DNA of 64,000 nt from Polytrichum commune (taxonomy: Eukaryota; Streptophyta; Polytrichopsida; Polytrichales; Polytrichaceae): the NCBI GenBank assembly GCA_950295325.1, contig OX485803.1, positions 38,145,554 through 38,209,553 of the forward strand, in the 5' to 3' direction. Positions 16,700 through 58,770 of the stretch are shown here, in pieces (the first letter of the stretch is position 1; the number at the start of each line of letters is the position of its first letter). The notes below the pieces were generated by a model. The model was given only the letters and a program-made list of their open reading frames with translations, was not told the origin of the DNA and did no database searches. Both the position numbers and the translations under genes were made by a program.

Positions 16700-18975
16700 T
16701 TAGTACAAATAAGCAACTGGGCGTGGATGTGCCACAGCTAGCAAGGGATTGCGTCTCCGTGCAGTGACACCGAAAACCTCTGACATGTCCAACTCTTCAG
16801 CTGAGCAACCCTCGGGTAAGCGCCAATCGAATCCGTGCACCAAGCGGGCGAGCATGGTAGGTACCGTCAAGTTGGCCAGGGGCATTCCAGGGCAAGTTCG
16901 CCGACCACATCCGAACGGGATGAGAGTGCAATCCAAGCTTCGTTGCTGCATGCTGCTGCTTCTTTGCAAGATGCTGCTACTCCGTTGCAGTAACTTAGGG
17001 CTACTGCCCCTGCTGTTTGGCTGGAGGAGAAATCGAGTTGGATCGAATTCTTCGGGGCGCTCGTAGATTTCTGGATCTCGGTGGATGGCATGCAGGTTCA
17101 TGATCATGCGTGTCTTCGGTGGGAGGTTGTATCCCCCTACTTGGGAATGGGTGCGGGATTCATGTTGCAACGACAACGGAGCTCCCGGCTGCAACCGTTG
17201 AATCTCCTTCACCACCGCCTCCAGGAATGGAAGATTCTCCAGGTCAGATTCCTCCACCACTCGGTGTGTTCCGACCACATTGTCCAGCTCCGTTTGCAGT
17301 CTTTGCAGCACCTCCGGTGCTCGAAGCAGGTACGCCATTGCCCACTCGAGTGTGGTCGATTGCGTCTCGGCTCCGGCAAACAACATGTTCTGCAGGAGAA
17401 AATGTCCATCCACAATATCCAATATGAGACTCAGACGTTACGAATGCCCGGGTAAGGGGTCACTTTTCCTTTTTCCATTAGAGCCAAAGTTGCACTCGAA
17501 CAAATCCACGCATCATTGCAAATGTTAGGTTTGCAAGCTTTGTAATTCAATTTCGACAGGGAAGGGATTTGTTACATCCTTTCATGTAGGTTTTCACAGA
17601 GGTGGAGAAATGGGTGCTATTGCTGCTGGCTAGCTTGCTTAAGAGGAATCTGTACAGATGTTATCCGGGTTGTGAAACTGGCAGCAGAAAGAAAAGAAAA
17701 GAAAAGAAAAGATAAACATGTGTCAATCGACAGGCGGAAGATTTACCAGGACAACGACTCGTATGGTAAAATCGTCGAGAGGGCCGGAGCCATCGTGCGA
17801 TGGGGTTGACATGAGTACATCGACGAAGTCACGGGGGCGGTGATCTGCTTCCTGCTCAGTCTGTTCCGCACGCGCTTTCCTGCGGGCATCCAGCTCAATC
17901 ATGTCGTCCAGGGTGTCGTATATGTTTTGTGCGAAGCCCATCATCTCCTTTGCGGTGCCTTGCCACTTGGTGATGAAGCTCAAGTAGGGAATGTAATCAC
18001 TCAGGACCACCCTGCCGAAAGCTGTGAAATGAGCGCCCACCATATCTTGGTACCGCTGCGCTTCGCCTAACTTGCCCTCCTTCTCTTCCTTGAAGAATCT
18101 GACATCCAACAACCGGAGGGACAGCCATCATCAGTCTTGGCTTAATTTCATCATGAACGCTCAAACTAACCTTACTCAGAGATTCACCTCGAGAATGTAT
18201 GCAACCATCCCAATGTGCAGTGGTGGGACATACTAAGAAAGAAAAGGAAAGTTGTGTACCGTTTGTTGAGGACCATCCGCGTGATTATGTTGGTGGCGGT
18301 GTTTAGAAGTTGGAACCGGAGATTGATCACTCGGTCATCCTCCGTGCTCTCGGTGGACTTTCGCAGAATGAATTTCATCAACGTAGCCATCTCCTCTGCT
18401 CTCCCAGCCTGGTAGGAAGCGAGGCGCTTTTTGGTGAACAGCTGAGTGGAGCAGATAGACCTCAAGTGGCGGTGCGGAGGGCCATAGGGCGACGATACAA
18501 GGTCCTTATCCTTGAGCAAGATGGAGTAGAAGAGCTTGTCAGGGCGGTGCGCAAACTCCAAGTCATGGTTTATGAGGAAATCTTTGGCCACCGCGGAGGA
18601 GGAGATGATAATGCAAGGGACGGATCCCAAGCGCAGGAACATTAGGTCTCCATACTTCTGGGCCAGCTTCCGCAGCGACAGATGAGGCAAGGGTCCCAAA
18701 CTTGTCAAGTTGCCAATGATCGGCCAACCCCGAGGCCCGGGAGGCACACTCTTCCCAAGCTTCCTCGACAGCAACGACTGTAGAATCATCGTCACTGCCA
18801 CCACAAATGACACCGACCATAACAACCGCTCCACAGGCACCTCATTCAAGGAGCTCGGGTATAAGGAGCTCGACTTGAAATTTACCATCTGCACTCCCAA
18901 CCCCCCAAATCCTAAGCCGATTAAGTCCTGCAAGTAATCACTGCTGCTGCTACAGTTGCTGGCCGGGGTCACCAT
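16700..18975 (-). CDS. Cytochrome P450, A-type (CYP71 clan), three exons
   Basis: A haem-thiolate monooxygenase anchored in the ER membrane; the substrate is unknown. Exons 18975-18260, 18098-17747 and 17389-16700 join in phase to 585 residues, each intron with GT/AG ends. The start is the ATG at 18975. Visible parts: a membrane helix at about 52-70, the PPGPRGWP hinge at 78-85, the I-helix AGAET at 361-365, ExxR (EIQR) at 418-421, FDPTRF at 471-476, and the haem loop FGCGRRTCPG at 515-524 with Cys522. Oddities: the N-terminus is about 50 residues longer than usual before the anchor, the conserved C-helix Trp (WxxxR) is His168, and a Gln/Ser-rich insert with repeated LQRSSS occupies about 483-507. 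The first intron is 161 bp and the second 357 bp. It is probably functional because no stops or shifts occur. The clan is clear; the family is not. Confidence 0.9.
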
Positions 18976-19492
18976 GACACGTCAACGGTCCGAAAACAAC
19001 GATCCCACTGATAAGAGGACTGATAGTATGAGTAACTAGCCCTGATGAATCTCGACAAATTTCCAGCTTCACTGGTCGGTACCAAAGAGCTTGCCGAAGA
19101 TCAAGATGATTCTTGACGTGTACTGCACCATTGAACACGTGCTTCAGAACCAGCTCGCGAGGGTGAGTTGTGGTCTGCGTGAAGATCGAGGTTCGTCATC
19201 GCCATTTGGTTGGACACTAAGAGGCACAGATGCAAAGTGGTGCGCGCCATGGCAGACAGGATTACACTTTCTGATTTAATCAATAATCGGCTCACAATGT
19301 GACTGGGGGCGGGAATAATTCGGCTACCGCTCGACTGAATCAGTTTTCAAAAGTCAGCGGGCTCACTGTTCAGTCCTTGAGAGAATCTTCAACGTGTTGT
19401 CTGTTTCCGGATGGCCTCCAGAAAGACTGACTCACTAATTCCTCATCGACCTAACCCAATTTTCATGACGAACTTCCCATGAGAGGAAGTAG

Positions 19493-35885: not shown

Positions 35886-37599
35886 CACCCTAACCTTGAT
35901 AATGTCACACCCTCCGTTTCACCAAAAAGTGTGATATAAACAAGGTGTGACATACTTGATAATGTCACATTTTGTGCATAATGTGATATTATCAAAAAAT
36001 ATGTAGAAAATCAAAATATAATTACAATTTATTTTTTAAAAAATACGAGACTTCAATGTTTACCAATGTAAAATCTAATTCAAAATTGTGAATAACAACA
36101 AGAGCACATCATAATGTGTCATTGAGATCAGGTAAAGACCTCTCACTAGAGACAAAGAAGCTTCTAATGTCACATTGTTTTGTTGATGTTAAATGTGCAA
36201 CACCAATTCTAATGAGTTTGTCATGGATTTTTTCCATTTCTAACAACTCATGAGTGCTGAAAATCTGAGAACCTTGGCTAGCCATAAAATTCAAAACATC
36301 TTTAGCATATTTTTGTGCATCGCTTAGCTTCACTACTTTAGACTCATCATCTCTGCTATCAACAATCAATGGGTCCACTTCCATGGAATCAAGAACCTGT
36401 TCGCCATCTTGCACTAATTGCACAAGCTCCTCAGTAGAAAATTCCACCTCAAAATCATCTTCACCTTCCATGTTTATGTGCTCCAAAGGACAAAGCTTTT
36501 CTACAGGCTTGCCTTCAACATCCAAACCCAAATTTAATGCGGCGATGAGTCTACCCAATTCCAAAGTTGCTTCCTCCATTTTGGACTTCATACGTTCATC
36601 AAGATTGTTTATATTTGCAGGCAATATGGCGGACTTTCTCCAACAATTTCTAATGGTTTGATCATCTAATTCATGCCATGCCGCCACACACCATAGCATA
36701 GCTTGAAATACATCAACATTCAATTTCCCAAAATCTTCATTTGAGTTGTTATCAATTTGTTGCAAAGTCCAGGCAACAAGCTTGCGCTTATAGCACATTT
36801 TGAATGCTGCAATCACTCCTTGATCCAAAGGCTGAACAACTGAAGTCACATTTGGTGGAAGGAACAAGATAGTGATATGGGAGAGTACAAAAGCATGAAA
36901 CCCATCTATAACTTTCTTGACCTCACCATGAATATCATGGCTTCCTGCATTATCCATAATAATGCAAATCTTTCTGTCTTTCAATGCCATTCTTCGGTTC
37001 TCACTCTTCACCCAATGTGTAAAAACATCACCATTCATCCAGGCTGAATTGTTAGAATTATAGTGTACTATCCTATTTGGATCAAAATTCCGAGGAAAGC
37101 ATCTGGGACGCGCTGCTTTGTGAATGAAAACAAGCTTCAATTGCTCCTTCCCTGAGATATTAGTGCAAAGCCCCAATGTCACACGGTCCTTCTTTTTCTT
37201 ATTTCCTTTCGCCTTCCCAATATTCAAAGTCTTATAAGGAGAGGCTCTATAATACAAACATGTCTCATCATACGATGCAGGCGGAGCTGCGAGAAGTTGA
37301 TCTGCGAGAGAAACCGTTGCTTCTTCGGCACATGAGATTCAAGAACCCAAGATTCAAGCGGAAGTAGGTGAAGATGCCGACGTCATCCATAGAATTTGTT
37401 GTCCATCCGGCCTTTTTTCATCCATGTTACTTGTTATTATCACACTTACACTACAAATTTTGAAAAACAAATGTGACATTATCAAGGGTGATAGTGATAA
37501 TAACGAGGGAGTTTTACACTATGGAAATCGGTTTCAAACTTTTAGGTGACAATATCAAGGTGTTCTATTAACAAGTGTGATATTATCAAGGTTAGGGTG
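35886..37599 (-). mobile_element. Tigger/pogo-type DNA transposon, internally shortened
   Basis: Terminal inverted repeats begin CACCCTAACCTTGATAATGT at the left and, reversed, CACCCTAACCTTGATAATAT at the right, with sub-terminal copies of GTGACATTATCAAG. TA dinucleotides flank both ends (35884-35885 and 37600-37601), the mariner-superfamily target. The 1714-bp element carries one long transposase frame but has no room for the N-terminal helix-turn-helix half, so it is an internally deleted copy. The sub-terminal motif repeats could be transposase binding sites. Confidence 0.85.
36109..37338 (-). CDS. Tigger/CENP-B-like DDE transposase, N-terminally truncated
   Basis: An open frame of about 409 codons (no ATG at its start; it opens after a TGA near 37339) encodes a pogo/Tigger catalytic domain. 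In order: the first catalytic Asp in SYDETCLYY, a basic stretch GKAKGNKKKKDRVTLGL, the second Asp in CIIMDNAGSH, and the third Asp 43 residues later in VVQPLDQGVIAAFK. Next comes a C-terminal acidic region (EDDFEVEFSTEELVQLV), then DIRSFF near the end. All three Asp residues remain and there are no internal stops over 1.2 kb, while the CENP-B-type DNA-binding half is missing. A short ATG frame upstream (about 37410-37340, MDEKRPDGQQ) stops before joining it. It may be a young deletion derivative, or a fragment with a retained function. Confidence 0.8.
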   Translation of the reverse strand: MSCAEEATVSLADQLLAAPPASYDETCLYYRASPYKTLNIGKAKGNKKKKDRVTLGLCTNISGKEQLKLVFIHKAARPRCFPRNFDPNRIVHYNSNNSAWMNGDVFTHWVKSENRRMALKDRKICIIMDNAGSHDIHGEVKKVIDGFHAFVLSHITILFLPPNVTSVVQPLDQGVIAAFKMCYKRKLVAWTLQQIDNNSNEDFGKLNVDVFQAMLWCVAAWHELDDQTIRNCWRKSAILPANINNLDERMKSKMEEATLELGRLIAALNLGLDVEGKPVEKLCPLEHINMEGEDDFEVEFSTEELVQLVQDGEQVLDSMEVDPLIVDSRDDESKVVKLSDAQKYAKDVLNFMASQGSQIFSTHELLEMEKIHDKLIRIGVAHLTSTKQCDIRSFFVSSERSLPDLNDTL

Positions 37600-52032: not shown

Positions 52033-52212
52033 TCCTCTCGTTCCTCAAGGCAGCCATTTGGTGATTCATAACCTTTGACTGAAAGAGAACTTGAGGTCAA
52101 AATTGCGTAGTCGTAAGATAAGACAAGGTGAAGGTCGAGGCAGCGCCGGGATTGCTTCTGACATTAAGGTAGTAATTATTATTTGCGTGGATTTTACAAG
52201 TAGGGAGCTGAA

Positions 52213-52303
52213 ATGCGAGTGATGCGCGAAGGCAAAACCATTGACAGAGCAGTTTGGCTGGCCAAACGTGGTGGACCCTGCAAAGAGCCAGATCGACTCA
52301 GAA
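52213..52303 (+). other. Candidate upstream exon
   Basis: Starts at an ATG (reading MRVMREGKTIDRAVWLAKRG, then GPCKEPDRLR) and ends at a strong donor, GAA|GTGAGTG. It can be joined in phase to an acceptor at 52812-52813 (GGTGCAG|AAGG), which would extend the methyltransferase frame by about 35 residues ahead of the ATG at 52828. Equally it could be a leader exon carrying an upstream ORF. Confidence 0.35.
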
Positions 52304-52827: not shown

Positions 52828-55800
52828 ATGTGCGAGGCTCACTTCTCCGAAATGCGGTGGTACTCAGAGCTTTCTACCACTGCATTTTGCGAAGCTCTGG
52901 ACCTGGTACGCTCCTCCGTTGATGTGACCTTTGTGAAAGGCACCTTTGATTTGTGGCTCTCAACCTTGGCTCTATCCTGCGATTATTTCCAGTTCAATAA
53001 CTTAAATGATCCATATTACCTCTGTGCTAACCTCAAACCTAACGTTTCTAGGTTGGACAATTCATGTGCTGAGCCTTATGTAATACTCAAGTTAGTGACA
53101 TAGTCAGTTTCCTGATTGGGGGCATAGCTGAGTTATAGGCCTGTTTGACAGGCACCAGTTGGGAAGGTCTTTGTGTTTTAGCCTCGTGGCACGACACAAA
53201 GCGTTCTGTTAGTCAGCAGTGAGTATGTCTGCCACTCCATGTGAAAGGTCTATGTCTGCCCCTTAGGTATTCACCGGACTTTTTGAAAAGTGTAGGGTGC
53301 CTACAGCAAGGGCTACTCACATACGTTTGCCTTATTTGTCTTTCTCAAGCCCTGAGGCCATCCACGGCCTGTTGGAAAGTTTTTACTTAGGGCTGTCTTC
53401 CTCTGGTATTTCTGGCTTTTGATGTGGGTTTAACAGATGGCCGGCTGGGGATCACGTCAAAGACCTGACAAGTCTCCATTGGCTCTCGGTTGCAGCGTAG
53501 GATACTCCTACAGAAGCGGCAGTCTTATGGGAGGAGTAAACGAAGACCCCCACTACTGGAACCTGCCAGTGCAGAGTTTATTTCAGCCTTGGCAGCTGGG
53601 ATCAATTCAAGACATACCCTGCAGATTGGATGTGGGTTGTCGACACTTGCACTTGCTGCAGGTAACAGTCATTTCACATTCATATTTTTTGGTTTTGTGA
53701 GTCATCTGGACAGGAGTTTTGGTTCCGATATTTAGCCTCACTGTGTAACTTACCATTGTGCTGTGAATGTACTCTGCCATATATTGTACTTGTACTTGAT
53801 AGAATACTAGTGGATTCTGCTTTATTTACTCAAAATAAGCTACTCTACCTGCAGCTGCGCGAGCTACAAACAGTCGCCTGTGGTCTGTGCACCATGAGAA
53901 AGAGAAACAACGTGTTGTACAATATTTTTTGAAAGACATGGGGTTGATGGAGTATGTTGAATTCGTCACTGAGGATCCATCAACTTTCATTCCTCAAAGA
54001 GAAGGTATATTTTAGAATTGTGGAGAACGTCTTGCAATTTGAGAGAGCATCCTTTAGAGCAGTTAGAAGGAACTATCAGGTCTGGAAAAGTGTATTCAGG
54101 TTATGGAAGCTGCAAAATGAGCTCTTGAACTAGAAAAATGGACCTGAGGTGTTTGCAGCTTCACTTGTGATGGCCTTAGAAGAAACGAGTATTGAAATAT
54201 GGTTTTAGGGTTTATATCACAATGTGTGCATTTTACAAACCTGACAGTAAGAGGGTGGGGCACAGGAGTTGAATTTGTGCTGCTGTCGGGCCTGCCTGAA
54301 CGGTACATTGAGCTTTTTGACCTCTTAAACCTTAAGAAAGGAGCAATTGTGGTGGCGGACAATGCCCTAGATGACACTACAAATGCATACATTCGGCATG
54401 TGAGGCGACAACCTGGTGTTGATTCTTCAACCCTGCCACTCAGTCGAGGCATTGAAGTTACCAAGCTTGTCACTTGGGAGTCATTCAAGGCAGGGTGAGT
54501 AACAGTAATTCAATTCAAGAAGAAATCATTCTCAAGGGTAACAGTTTGAGCTTCTTTGGCGAAGCCATTTAGTCTTGAAAATCATGCAATGTGTTACTTA
54601 ATGTAATCCAATCATTACAGATTGAAGTTGCCAAGTATGCAGATGCATCTTAAGAACCTTAATATTTGCTAGATTACCATGGTATTAAATCTACACGATA
54701 ACTGTAGGAGGAAGAAGTATGGTGGCATTGGAGATCCAATCAATGATAAAGAGTACATTTCACGGCGGCCAGGTCTACAGGGAGTAGGAGCTTCAAACCT
54801 CCCTCTATCTTCCAGCAGCCTTCTCTTCTCTACAAATTCAGATGCCTTATCTGAAACCAGCTCAAGTTCTAGGCCAAAGACACTCCTGATACAATTAAAG
54901 CAGAGCAACTCTGGAGTGTTGGTCAGCTGTAGGGAAAGCCCTGCCAATGTCTCTGAGGCTGTTGTCCCTACTGAACCTGCTTCCAACGCACAGGAAGCTT
55001 CACATCAAGGTGAGTTATGTGGTAGATGATTTCAAGTTATGAGCAGTACCAAAGTTTATCCTTATCAGTTAGGTAAACAAGCTATACAGTGGCACCACAC
55101 ACATCATTCATAGGGTAAATGGCCAAACCCGATTAGTAAGTCCAATGTCATGTGGATGTTTGTGTTGTTAAGAGGTGCCCTAATTAGTGGGGTGCCTTAA
55201 ACTCAAGGCCTTCACCCGGATCCCATGGGAGCTCCAAGGTTAAGTTTCCTTAGGCCAGATAGTGCTCAGATGGGTGACCTTCCTAGCACTTGATTTCCTG
55301 TGCATCCTGCCATTTTGATCCACCCAATCATAGTGGGAGTATCTGGGTGAAGTGGATGTTCTCTACCAACCATGTGGGAATCTTGAGGCTTTGTCTTGGG
55401 GGAGATTAGGGGTGGGCTGGCTTGTTTGCACCCATTCAAGGTGTTCAATTTTGAAAAGAGGTAGTATTCTTCCAGGTCACTCTAATTCTCGTGATGTTCA
55501 TTTCAGAATTTACACATATAATTAGAATAACTACAAGATGAAGGAACACCACAAATCATGCCCTGGGCAACATTGGAGTCATCCTTTCTTTGTTTTTTTG
55601 CCCTTTTTAGTGGTCCCCGGAGTGCCACCTGACTCCAGTTGCAAGGTGTGTATGTGCAGATGCTATTGAGGAGCAGTTCAAGTCTATGCAAAGTCTTGCT
55701 GAACAGTGGCGGCTACAACTGGCTGCACAAGATGAAAGCTCTGGTGTGTCAGGAGCACCTGCAGAGACTTTAAAAGCAAAGCCTCTCGAGCATATAAGTG

Positions 55801-57647
55801 ATGAGGTGGCGTCACCATTGTGTAAACTCTCTGTAGTTTTGCCACAGGACCAAGCTCCAGGAGGTGTTCAAGAGAAAAGTCATCTGAAGGTGAGGCTTAG
55901 TCTGTGTGTTACGGATTTCTGCACTGAGAGCCTCGTAATGTACAGCACTGCAAAGCTTCTGCTGCACACACTTCTGCTTGTGTATGTCTGATGTGAGTGA
56001 GGGTTGGTTTCACTCGTATCCATGTAGTTTATTCTCAGATAGAAATCCACTATGAGGATTTGAGTGTAAATCGCAGACAGTTTTGAAAGTGACTATGGAT
56101 TTTTAGGTATCTGTCATTTCTTGTATATATGTTATCGTGATTTTTCTTTTCTTGGCACTGCTAATCTTAAATGAGTATTCATTAGACATTGGTGAGGTCC
56201 TTCTTTCTCCTTTTCTTTAGTTATATTTGTAATGCACTCCTTTCATGTTGATAATCTCTCCTTGTCTTTGTTATATGTAACCTAAGAAGACTGCAGAGTT
56301 CTAGTTCAAGTATTTTGTATTGATTATCAGAATGATGTCTTTTTTGATGATCTATTAAATAACAATTTAAAAAAAGTGAGAGTCCCAACTACTACTACTG
56401 AAATCTCTGCACTTCATTGATCAGTTTAGGGACCCCTTGTAAAACAGATGCAGAGGCATGTTCCAAAATATTTGGTTTAGTAAGGGGTCTCTAAGCATGT
56501 TCATCTATGCCATTTATCATGCCATCTACGTTAGGTTAGTTTTTACAAGTAGGTGCCTGTGCTCATATGCCTTATCCACAAGGCTCTTAGACCAGCACTT
56601 TTGACGTCTTTCTGCACGATCAGAGGGCTTAATAGAGGACTACCTGTGCCTTCATGACTATTACCTTTACTCTGGGTTGTATGTTACTGAAAATTTAAGC
56701 ACTATTGATCTATAAGTTTCTATAAGATTAGGTCGGTCTCCACATTCTCCCAGTTGTAGGGTACATCTGATTGGGTATGTGCTATATAAATATCCAGGTC
56801 AATCATGACGAGTATGTGACAAGACTCCATCGGCATTTGCCTGTAAGTCTTCTAGTATCCTATGTGTGAAAACCAGATCCAAATTTTTGTTATAGTACTT
56901 GAGATTGGTTTCTTCCAGCATTGAGTTTACGTGATTTCTCAAATGTGAAACAAATTTGCCTGGTCTGAACTTGCACATGCACTTGTTAATCGGGGACTAC
57001 AGTGGGTTCAAACTTTATTGATCTAAATGATTTTCTTGATATGATTTGAGCTTATGAATAAATTAATAGATTCACAGTTTATTGTTGCCCTTGCTTCCAA
57101 ACTTTTTCAGTTGATTCTCTGTGCTCTTTTGTTTAAATCATGGATTTGTTTTAAAAGACCCGGCCACTATTTGTTAGGTAGATGACTGAAATAGAGGGTT
57201 TTTAGTGCTGGTTTGTAGGAGAGGGTGAATGAGGAGGTTTAAGGAAGATTTCAAGAATTGGGTTGACCTTGATGAGATCGAAGAAAAATATTGAGAACTA
57301 TTTCAACCTTTTTTTGGAATGTTGGCATATGGTGCAGGAATAGTTATAGTACTCATGTGTGCTGTTTACATTTGTTTGTAGATGGATGTGGAAAAAAATC
57401 GTGCCTCCTTACCATCAAGTGATGGTTCGTTTGGAGAAAGAGTTGCACCTGAGCCTGCATTATCCACTGAAGCTCCAGTTCTCATTGAGGCTAGCACCAG
57501 TGGAAATGAAGAACCTGTTTTCCATGTGGATTTTCATATTGAGAATGGGCAAACAGAGGTCACAGTCGAGGGAGCTGACCAAGAAATGTTGCTTTTTGAC
57601 CTTACACTTGCATTTAATGAGACTGGAGTCAGGTTTGCGCCACACCT

Positions 57648-57697
<50 letters not shown>

Positions 57698-58770
57698 TAG
57701 AATTCTCCTCCAAGAACCGACATTAGTGGAAAGTTCATATAAGTGTGAGCCCATCCAGGAATCAACTTCAAAGAGTGTTTCTGGTGCCACATCTGGAATC
57801 ATCTTAGCTTGATAACTTGTGTATTATTTAATAGCACATTGAAGTGTGTGAAAGTTACAAAACAAGGAATTAAAAGACAATTCACTCACAGAATTGGTAG
57901 TTTCTAGATTATGAATTCTGTTCATAGTTAGCAATTTATACAAAGTGTATTGGGTTGAAATCCAGCTGAAAATTGAATACAAAGGTTGAGCTCCATTCTC
58001 ACATGTACAAGTTCTTAGAGAGACCGACAGTTCATAGGTTGACAGTTGAAAAGGCGTAAAACAACACAAAGTCATATGGATTGCCAGATCTTATATTTTT
58101 CCTAAAGTCTCTGGTCTTGGAATTGTTTCAGAAGACCTGGATGCCTGAAAATCCAAGCATGGTTATATATTAGCAGAAGTTGTCTCATTTTACTAGAGGT
58201 AGTCTTCTGATTAAACTCCAGATGAGTTGGCTAAAAGGTGAGTTTGAGAGCTTATCCATAACGTCACCCAAGTTTTCTTAAGGCTGAAATGAACATCCTA
58301 GGATTAGTGGGCCAAGCTGGCCTTGCATAGGCTGAGCTGGGATTGAAGGGTGCCTGGTCCTATACATCAACCCTTATTTTAGATCTTAGAGGTCTCAAAT
58401 TTTTTTGAATTGAAAGAGGAGGTCCAAGAGTTTCATCAAACTTTCAAGATTAGGCTCTGTCACAATAGAAGAGTCTCTCAAAGAGGGACTGAGCTCCTAT
58501 TCAAGGATAACTCTATTATCTTCATTATTATCAATGCTATCCATGGATTTGATGTATAATGGCTGCTCCTCTTACAAAGTTTTTTTGTGGTGGCTTGGTT
58601 GCAGTGTCAAAAGGGCAAAGATATCCACACAAGATTCTTATGTGGTTGATGTCTTCTATGTGGTGGATGGCGGAACCAAGGGACCGCTTTTGGAGACTCG
58701 TTGGGAGGCTGTTAGGAAACGCATTCTAGACCGGCTTGCAGAGCGTCGCCAACTCCTAGCAGGAGACTAG
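52828..58770 (+). CDS. SAM-dependent methyltransferase with C-terminal ACT domain (eight exons)
   Basis: Predicted exons: 52828-52905, 53496-53661, 53855-54004, 54266-54494, 54708-55009, 55660-55889, 57382-57632 and 58605-58770. All have GT/AG introns and matching phases, giving 523 residues. Residues 47-208 form a class I O-methyltransferase-like fold: EPASAEFISALAAGINSR, motif I LQIGCGLSTLALA at 68-80, EFVLLSGL at 134-141, and GAIVVADNAL at 157-166. The usual metal-binding or catalytic Asp after the fourth strand is Ser139, so activity may be altered or lost. Residues 209-435 are Ser/Glu/Pro-rich linker. Residues about 436-515 look like an ACT domain: FHIENGQTEVTVEGADQEML, LFDLTLAFNETGVSVKRAKI and YVVDVFYVVDG, then a basic helix. 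ACT domains bind amino acids or mediate pairing. No transit peptide is evident. Two genes divided in intron 6 remain possible because exon 7 opens with ATG. Confidence 0.7.
55189..55312 (+). mobile_element. 5S-rRNA-like element (Cassandra LTR or 5S-derived SINE) in intron 5
   Basis: About 124 bp follow plant 5S rRNA along its length. They open GGGGTGCC, then have CACCCGGATCCCATGGGAGC, then the internal promoter parts AAGGTTAAG (A box), CCTTAGGCC (intermediate) and AGATGGGTGACCTTCC (C box). They close with TTTCCTGTGCATCC. Several substitutions exclude a working 5S gene, and no tandem array is present. Plant Cassandra retroelements carry exactly such a 5S domain in their LTRs. A 5S-derived SINE would look similar. 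Limits of the host element are not fixed; the following roughly 130 bp, to about 55440, may be its body. Confidence 0.65.
57649..57694. repeat. (CT)n microsatellite just after a splice donor
   Basis: About 23 CT units begin 16 bases into intron 7, right after the exon at 57382-57632. They form a long pyrimidine tract far from the acceptor at 58604. Confidence 0.95.

What the first reader, a model, noticed from the sequence alone, without database searches (positions are those of the whole stretch)
52828..58770. A methyltransferase fused to an ACT domain
Eight exons with consensus splice sites join in one frame without a stop (1572 nt, an exact multiple of three). They put a class I SAM methyltransferase fold and a C-terminal ACT domain on one polypeptide, separated by about 230 low-complexity residues. 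ACT domains usually sense amino acids or related small molecules, so the pair suggests a ligand-gated or metabolically tuned methyltransferase. I do not know this architecture as an established family. That the whole chain stays in phase through exon 6 to 7 is the main evidence for one gene.
Basis: partly seen in the sequence, partly recalled or inferred. Interest (0 to 1): 0.75.

Follow-up and report, generated by a model that had tools for sequence, protein, structure and literature searches.

The report
Plant methyltransferase-like protein with ACT tail
A plant gene, present in two old copies, joins a methyltransferase-like domain to an amino-acid-sensor-like domain on one protein, but residues that such domains usually need are replaced in both copies, so it may be a modified sensor rather than an ordinary switchable enzyme.

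Summary
The fusion is real; the gene model and interpretation need correction. An old paralogue on the same chromosome (G000:C1:76.26 Mb) has the same domain order and exon phases. Comparison shows nine exons, not eight: a 45-nt exon (56798-56842) was missed, and two acceptors move (53514 to 53496; 54248 to 54266). The corrected product is 538 aa. Both ends are under purifying selection (dN/dS 0.19 and 0.11); the linker is looser (0.49) but holds conserved islands.

The N-terminal domain is DUF1442 (PF07279, above cut-off), related to cation-dependent O-methyltransferases. Its closest relatives found outside this genome are free-standing planctomycete proteins (best 46% identical). The C-terminal domain is ACT-like, nearest to the GlnD/ACR type, but below every Pfam cut-off. 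In both copies the Glu that binds SAM ribose in COMT is His, a metal-binding Asp is Ser, and the conserved ACT-loop Gly is Met.

A ligand-gated methyltransferase is therefore possible but not supported. I favour an ACT-dimerised, SAM/SAH-responsive or non-canonical methyltransferase-like regulator. The listings I saw in the held open library described no such architecture; plant proteomes could not be searched. New variant of a known kind.

The parts
52828..52905 (+). exon 1 (78 nt), start codon; N-terminal region
   Evidence: paralogue exon also 78 nt, phase 0
53496..53661 (+). exon 2 (166 nt), acceptor corrected from 53514; methyltransferase motif I (LQIGCG)
53855..54004 (+). exon 3 (150 nt), methyltransferase, includes SVHH
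54266..54494 (+). exon 4 (229 nt), acceptor corrected from 54248; methyltransferase, includes VLLSG and VADN
54708..55009 (+). exon 5 (302 nt), end of methyltransferase domain and start of linker
55660..55889 (+). exon 6 (230 nt), linker with conserved EEQFKSMQSLAEQWRLQLAA
57382..57632 (+). exon 8 (251 nt), linker end and first half of the ACT-like domain; starts with ATG in both copies
58605..58770 (+). exon 9 (166 nt), second half of the ACT-like domain and stop codon
52213..52300 (+). conserved 5' leader segment with an upstream reading frame (MRVMREGKTIDRAVWLAK...), ending at a possible donor; not shown to be part of the protein

Best explanation
One nine-exon nuclear gene encodes a 538-residue protein: a DUF1442-type class I (Rossmann) methyltransferase-like domain (about residues 1-230), a linker of about 212 residues carrying two short conserved segments, and a single GlnD/ACR-type ACT-like domain (about 443-538). 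Shown here: one conserved gene, both domains under purifying selection, and replacement in both copies of the COMT-type ribose-binding Glu, a metal-binding Asp and the ACT-loop Gly. Inferred: the ACT-like domain mainly holds the protein as a dimer or tethers it to a partner, the conserved linker segments dock onto one of the folds, and the methyltransferase fold binds SAM or SAH in a non-canonical way. It would then act either as a metal-independent methyltransferase of unknown substrate or, as I think slightly more likely, as a SAM/SAH-responsive regulator without COMT-type catalysis.
For: Same architecture and phases at two loci; dN/dS 0.19 (bootstrap 0.13-0.29) for the methyltransferase part, 0.11 (0.05-0.21) for ACT, 0.49 (0.30-0.71) for the linker; identities 171 of 229, 74 of 96 and 88 of 201. 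Linker core EEQFKSMQSLAEQWRLQLAA has dN/dS 0.08 and the 45-nt exon 0.19, on only 20 and 14 codons. DUF1442 above cut-off in both copies. The PDB relatives listed are mostly O-methyltransferases of the cation-dependent kind. Three acidic positions are invariant in 6 of 6 bacterial sequences aligned and are Gln, His and Ser in both fused copies; two further bacterial frames, read by eye, also keep them (L015, L019). Roles in COMT: Glu90 binds the ribose hydroxyls (PMC3164188, passages); Asp141, Asp169 and Asn170 surround the metal (PMC3466255, passages). The ACT loop reads D-Q-(E/D)-M where 10 of 10 other ACT places of this genome that I read with the loop have D-x-x-G (I read 10 of the 17 places); the loop Gly is called conserved in PMC3173338 (figure legend).
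Against: The Asp-Asn pair of the COMT metal site (VADN) and the motif I glycines are kept, so SAM binding and catalysis may survive. The free-standing DUF1442 gene of the same genome also lacks the ribose Glu, so that change alone does not mark loss of function. Dimerisation, SAM binding and docking by the linker were not tested. There is no RNA evidence. Residue matches rest on sequence alignments with distant relatives (32-46% identity to the bacterial rows). The structure of the fused protein was not predicted.
Confidence: 0.45

Rival explanations
1. An active O-methyltransferase whose activity is switched by an amino acid or similar ligand bound by the ACT domain; it would work like the amino-acid-regulated ACT-GNAT acetyltransferases of actinobacteria.
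For: Both folds are conserved; glycines of motif I and the VADN pair are kept; an ACT-GNAT precedent exists for a regulatory ACT on a transferase (PMC5861322, a commentary; abstract and passages).
Against: Ribose Glu replaced by His, a metal Asp by Ser, ACT-loop Gly by Met, in both copies.
Confidence: 0.3
2. Two transcription units: a methyltransferase gene ending in the large gap before exon 8 and an ACT gene starting at the ATG of exon 8; or an extra ACT-only isoform from that ATG.
For: Exon 8 begins with ATG in both copies, and the gap from exon 6 to exon 8 is long in both (1492 and 1046 nt).
Against: Coding sequence on both sides of the gap, and a 45/48-nt in-phase exon inside it, are conserved between copies that have diverged to dS of about 0.8-1.2; two adjacent genes need not keep coding phase across the gap.
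Confidence: 0.08
3. A catalytically dead pair of duplicated relics, on the way to pseudogenes.
For: Hallmark residues are replaced; the linker evolves quickly.
Against: Both reading frames are intact with GT-AG at every junction, and dN/dS is well below 1 in both domains.
Confidence: 0.04
4. A non-canonical, metal-independent methyltransferase with a constitutive ACT dimerisation domain and no small-molecule switch.
For: The replacing residues (Gln, His, Ser) are the same in both copies, as if they had a new role.
Against: No substrate and no structural evidence for an alternative catalytic residue.
Confidence: 0.13

Closest known systems
DUF1442 (PF07279), methyltransferase-like family of unknown function
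   Same: Domain above the curated cut-off in both copies.
   Different: The family member of the same genome on C2 shows no ACT domain in its 211-aa frame and keeps the metal-site Asp.
Cation-dependent O-methyltransferases (COMT, CCoAOMT, bacterial family 3; PF01596)
   Same: Best solved relatives, 8c9v at E 1.2e-14 and COMT at best 8.9e-7; VADN kept.
   Different: Glu90-like and Asp141-like residues replaced; PF01596 below cut-off (17.7 and 20.1 against 22).
Free-standing planctomycete DUF1442-like proteins (L013, L019, L021, L022)
   Same: 40-46% identical over about 153 residues; L013 scores DUF1442 above cut-off.
   Different: The frames end 2 to 9 residues after the methyltransferase match, so no C-terminal ACT; the acidic residues are kept.
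Plant ACR proteins and the GlnD C-terminal ACT domains
   Same: Best matches of the ACT-like domain.
   Different: Arabidopsis ACR proteins hold two to four ACT domains (PMC3173338, passages) and no recognisable catalytic domain (PMC6081435, start of abstract in a listing); here a single ACT sits behind a methyltransferase-like domain and lacks the loop Gly.
ACT-GNAT acetyltransferases of actinobacteria (AAPatA)
   Same: An ACT domain fused to a group-transfer enzyme (PMC5861322, passages).
   Different: Different enzyme fold and kingdom; ligand response there is reported, here unknown.

Membership tests
DUF1442 (PF07279) | Score above the curated Pfam cut-off | tested here: met
   34.6 and 37.6 bits against 27
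Cation-dependent O-methyltransferase (COMT type, PF01596) | Score above the curated Pfam cut-off | tested here: not met
   17.7 and 20.1 bits against 22
Cation-dependent O-methyltransferase (COMT type, PF01596) | Three metal ligands (Asp, Asp, Asn) | tested here: not met
   First Asp is Ser in both copies; Asp-Asn kept
Class I SAM-dependent methyltransferase | Glycine-rich motif I and acidic residue for the SAM ribose | tested here: inconclusive
   IGCG kept, ribose Glu is His in both copies
Class I SAM-dependent methyltransferase | SAM binding and methyl transfer | not testable with these tools
   needs purified protein
ACT domain (Pfam ACT models) | Score above a curated Pfam cut-off | tested here: not met
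   Best 22.8 bits (ACR10_N) against 27 on the isolated domain; a PF01842 search of the genome did not list this place among its 17
ACT domain (GlnD/ACR type) | Significant similarity to known GlnD or ACR ACT domains | tested here: met
   PRK05092 C-terminus E 9.4e-11, a partial match far below that model's whole-protein cut-off; ACR-like domains of the same genome, best E 6.2e-6
ACT domain (GlnD/ACR type) | Gly in the beta1-alpha1 loop | tested here: not met
   DQEM and DQDM against D-x-x-G
ACR family | Two or more ACT domains and no other domain | tested here: not met
   One ACT-like domain behind a DUF1442 domain

The most novel reading that the evidence does not exclude
An ACT-tethered pseudo-methyltransferase: a methyltransferase fold that has given up metal-dependent catalysis and reads SAM/SAH or a related metabolite, coupled through conserved linker segments to a GlnD/ACR-type dimerisation domain, so that methyl-group supply and amino-acid nitrogen status could be read by one plant protein.
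Probability: 0.25. Interest if true: 0.7.

Novelty: new variant of a known kind. Interest (0 to 1): 0.5.

Why it matters
Pfam still lists DUF1442 as a protein of unknown function, and the held library has only eight papers that mention the name. A natural fusion to a GlnD/ACR-type domain gives a hint at its context, amino-acid or methyl-group sensing. The replaced residues make a sharp prediction that simple binding and activity tests can decide.

Tried and rejected
Two-gene reading: rejected as the main model because of the shared in-phase exon and linker conservation in the paralogue.

Viral relatives: two scans of viral contigs found no relative.

A bacterial MT-ACT fusion as ancestor: 5 of 199 planctomycete genomes had a relative at E 1e-8 or better (one of the five is L013's own genome), and the scan of genome contigs gave four loci. 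In all eight distinct loci (L013-L016, L019, L021-L023) the frame ends 1 to 9 residues after the methyltransferase match, leaving no room for a C-terminal ACT. The 517-aa frame of L021 looks like a methyltransferase read together with upstream DNA, judged by its alignment to the others.

ACT by sequence against PDB: the profile of the two ACT-like domains matched 0 sequences at E up to 10; the single sequence gave one hit at E 0.82 to an anchoring-domain protein.

Structure prediction: only bacterial relatives (L013, with L014 and L016 as alignment) were folded, mean pLDDT 66.5, pTM 0.67. Foldseek puts O-methyltransferases on top (best E 2.8e-8, TM about 0.5, rmsd 3.6-10.1 A in the 50 rows shown). 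It adds little to the sequence match.

Intron comparison: with blastn-short at E 0.01 nothing was listed for any of the seven gaps, including the one that holds the 45-nt exon. The case for that exon rests on the ordinary blastn hit, the shuffle control, splice sites and phase.

My first corrected model (and notebook entry 1) still used acceptor 53514 and had an off-by-one in the paralogue; replace it.

Tree: the planctomycete/plant group of six rows is supported, but the place of the C2 gene relative to the fused copies is open and flagged for long branches, so I claim no order of descent. Local synteny of the two copies: the neighbouring P450 gave no match beside the paralogue.

Literature: searches for the architecture gave listings without a description of it. 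They are capped lists: 8 of 8 papers, 15 of 2,798, 15 of 26, 20 of 58, 12 of 2,900, 20 of 22; one search returned none. I judged by titles and the starts of abstracts.
Full report
Observation. The genome (G000, 408 Mb in 64 contigs, window at C1:38145554-38209553) looks photosynthetic: a search with the chlorophyll a/b-binding family gave 58 matches, while of 14 prokaryote controls only the cyanobacterium rang. The species was not given.

A second copy. A query spanning exon 4 and the start of exon 5 matched, besides itself, a paralogue at C1:76262851-76263078 (86% identical), a gene on C2 (43%) and its own next exon. The ACT half matched the same paralogue (70% and 76% for its two exons) and then four ACR-like places at 41-43%. 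Exon 1 matched at the protein level only (59%).

Corrected model. The 42-nt block marks a 45-nt exon, 56798-56842, bounded by CAG and GTAAGT; the paralogue has a 48-nt counterpart bounded by CAG and GTAAGC. Both are phase 0 and open. The best match between the two gaps (41.0 bits) beat all of 200 shuffles (maximum 32.8), though a stricter blastn-short run at E 0.01 did not list it. The exon 2 acceptor at 53496 and the exon 4 acceptor at 54266 are supported by the paralogue. Final: 1617 nt, 538 aa; paralogue 1626 nt, 541 aa; GT-AG and equal phases at all eight junctions.

Selection. By a Nei-Gojobori count between the two copies, dN/dS is 0.19 for residues 1-230 (171 of 229 aligned codons give the same residue), 0.49 for 231-442 (88 of 201) and 0.11 for 443-538 (74 of 96), with dS 0.79-1.17. 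Inside the linker, the 20-codon stretch EEQFKSMQSLAEQWRLQLAA has 0.08 and 14 codons of the 45-nt exon have 0.19; these are small samples. A search of the genome with a 29-residue piece holding that stretch listed only the two loci, at E up to 10. Conservation on both sides of the large gap, in phase, is the main evidence for one gene. This compares two copies in one genome; it is not a survey of species.

N-terminal domain. Pfam gives DUF1442 above cut-off in both copies (34.6 and 37.6 bits against 27), with Methyltransf_24 and Methyltransf_3 below theirs. A profile of the two copies and the C2 gene matched 57 PDB sequences at E up to 0.01, led by bacterial O-methyltransferases (8c9v, 1.2e-14), with COMT from 8.9e-7. 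The one scan of genome contigs found four loci, the best a planctomycete protein at 46% identity (L013); 5 of 199 genomes of that phylum hold a relative at E 1e-8 or better, at 28-46% identity. In an alignment of nine sequences (six bacterial), three acidic positions are invariant in 6 of 6 bacterial rows; two more bacterial frames read later also keep them (L015, L019). In both fused copies they read Gln (motif I), His (after strand 2) and Ser (after strand 4); in the C2 gene the first and third are acidic and the second is not. In COMT the second corresponds to Glu90, which binds the ribose hydroxyls (PMC3164188, passages read), and the third to Asp141, a metal ligand with Asp169 and Asn170 (PMC3466255, passages read). 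The correspondence is my reading of the HMMER and MAFFT alignments; which strand each follows is recalled for this fold. The Asp-Asn pair is kept (VADN).

C-terminal domain. Within the whole protein, Pfam lists ACR10_N (18.4 bits) and ACT_4 (13), both below their cut-off of 27; for the isolated domain ACR10_N reaches 22.8. The PF01842 search of the genome listed 17 places, none of them this domain. NCBIfam finds the C-terminal ACT region of GlnD at 9.4e-11 (window) and 6.8e-8 (paralogue); these are partial matches far below whole-protein cut-offs. BLASTP gives 45% identity over 60 residues to an ACR-like domain of the same genome. I read eleven ACT places: 10 of the 17 and one (L034), which holds only the second half. 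The 10 with the loop all read D-x-x-G; both fused copies read D-Q-(E/D)-M. The ACR11 paper marks a conserved Gly in the beta1-alpha1 loop (PMC3173338, figure legend among passages). The profile of the two domains matched no PDB sequence, so the ACT label is by distant similarity only.

A single-ACT relative. L034 (C1:62998144) belongs to a gene whose upstream exon ends in MDQDNLLMDVTTSFFEMGI and whose intron falls at the same phase-2 position inside the ACT fold as in the window gene (read). It too lacks the loop Gly (Asn in that place). The methyltransferase query, which covered only part of the domain, listed no match near it. It suggests where the ACT exons came from, or a shared ancestor; direction is not shown.

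Mechanism. Shown: two conserved copies, intact frames, purifying selection at both ends, replacement of hallmark residues. Inferred: dimerisation by ACT (a common role of the fold, recalled), docking by linker segments, altered SAM site. An ACT-regulated group-transfer enzyme exists elsewhere: actinobacterial ACT-GNAT acetyltransferases respond to Asn, Cys or Arg (PMC5861322, a commentary, abstract and passages).

Novelty. Searches of the held open library for DUF1442 (8 papers), for ACT with methyltransferase in several wordings and for ACT, ACR, GlnD and Physcomitrella listed no description of this architecture. The lists are capped (numbers in Tried and rejected) and I judged by titles and starts of abstracts. 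Subscription papers and plant proteomes are out of reach, so the architecture may already sit unremarked in plant annotations. I call it a new variant of a known kind: two known domain families in a combination I did not find described.

Noticed in passing
window 52204-52300; L011 reverse strand 74-150: A leader segment conserved between the two copies (81% over 77 nt) holds an upstream frame starting MRVM-EG-TIDRAV; among its first 18 codons five changes are synonymous and four are not. The only other genome match is the paralogue, weakly (E 0.5). It could be a conserved upstream ORF or a coding 5' exon; by hand, not by a call, joining it in frame works in the window copy but not in the paralogue at the sites I tried.
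   Followed up: partly
L035 7079-7863 (G000:C1:62997578-62998362): Single ACT-like gene with the same intron position and phase as the window gene's ACT domain, also lacking the loop Gly; GlnD-like by NCBIfam at 1.1e-10. Its 5' end was not determined.
   Followed up: partly
window 57650-57695: A long CT dinucleotide run begins about 17 nt after the exon 8 donor (read).
   Followed up: no
window 36109-37338, minus strand: 409-aa open frame that looks like a DDE-type (pogo/Tigger-like) transposase, by motifs recalled and not searched.
   Followed up: no
window 16700-18981, minus strand: Pieces of a cytochrome P450 gene (by recalled motifs). For the exon searched, the best other match is 43% identical and none lies beside the MT-ACT paralogue; the nearest there is about 0.3 Mb away at 41%.
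   Followed up: partly
G000:C5:1.75-1.85 Mb: 14 chlorophyll a/b-binding matches with the same score to the family model lie within about 95 kb, a recent-looking tandem array.
   Followed up: no
window 57382 and L011 reverse strand 5277: Exon 8 starts with an in-frame ATG in both copies, a possible start for an ACT-only isoform.
   Followed up: no
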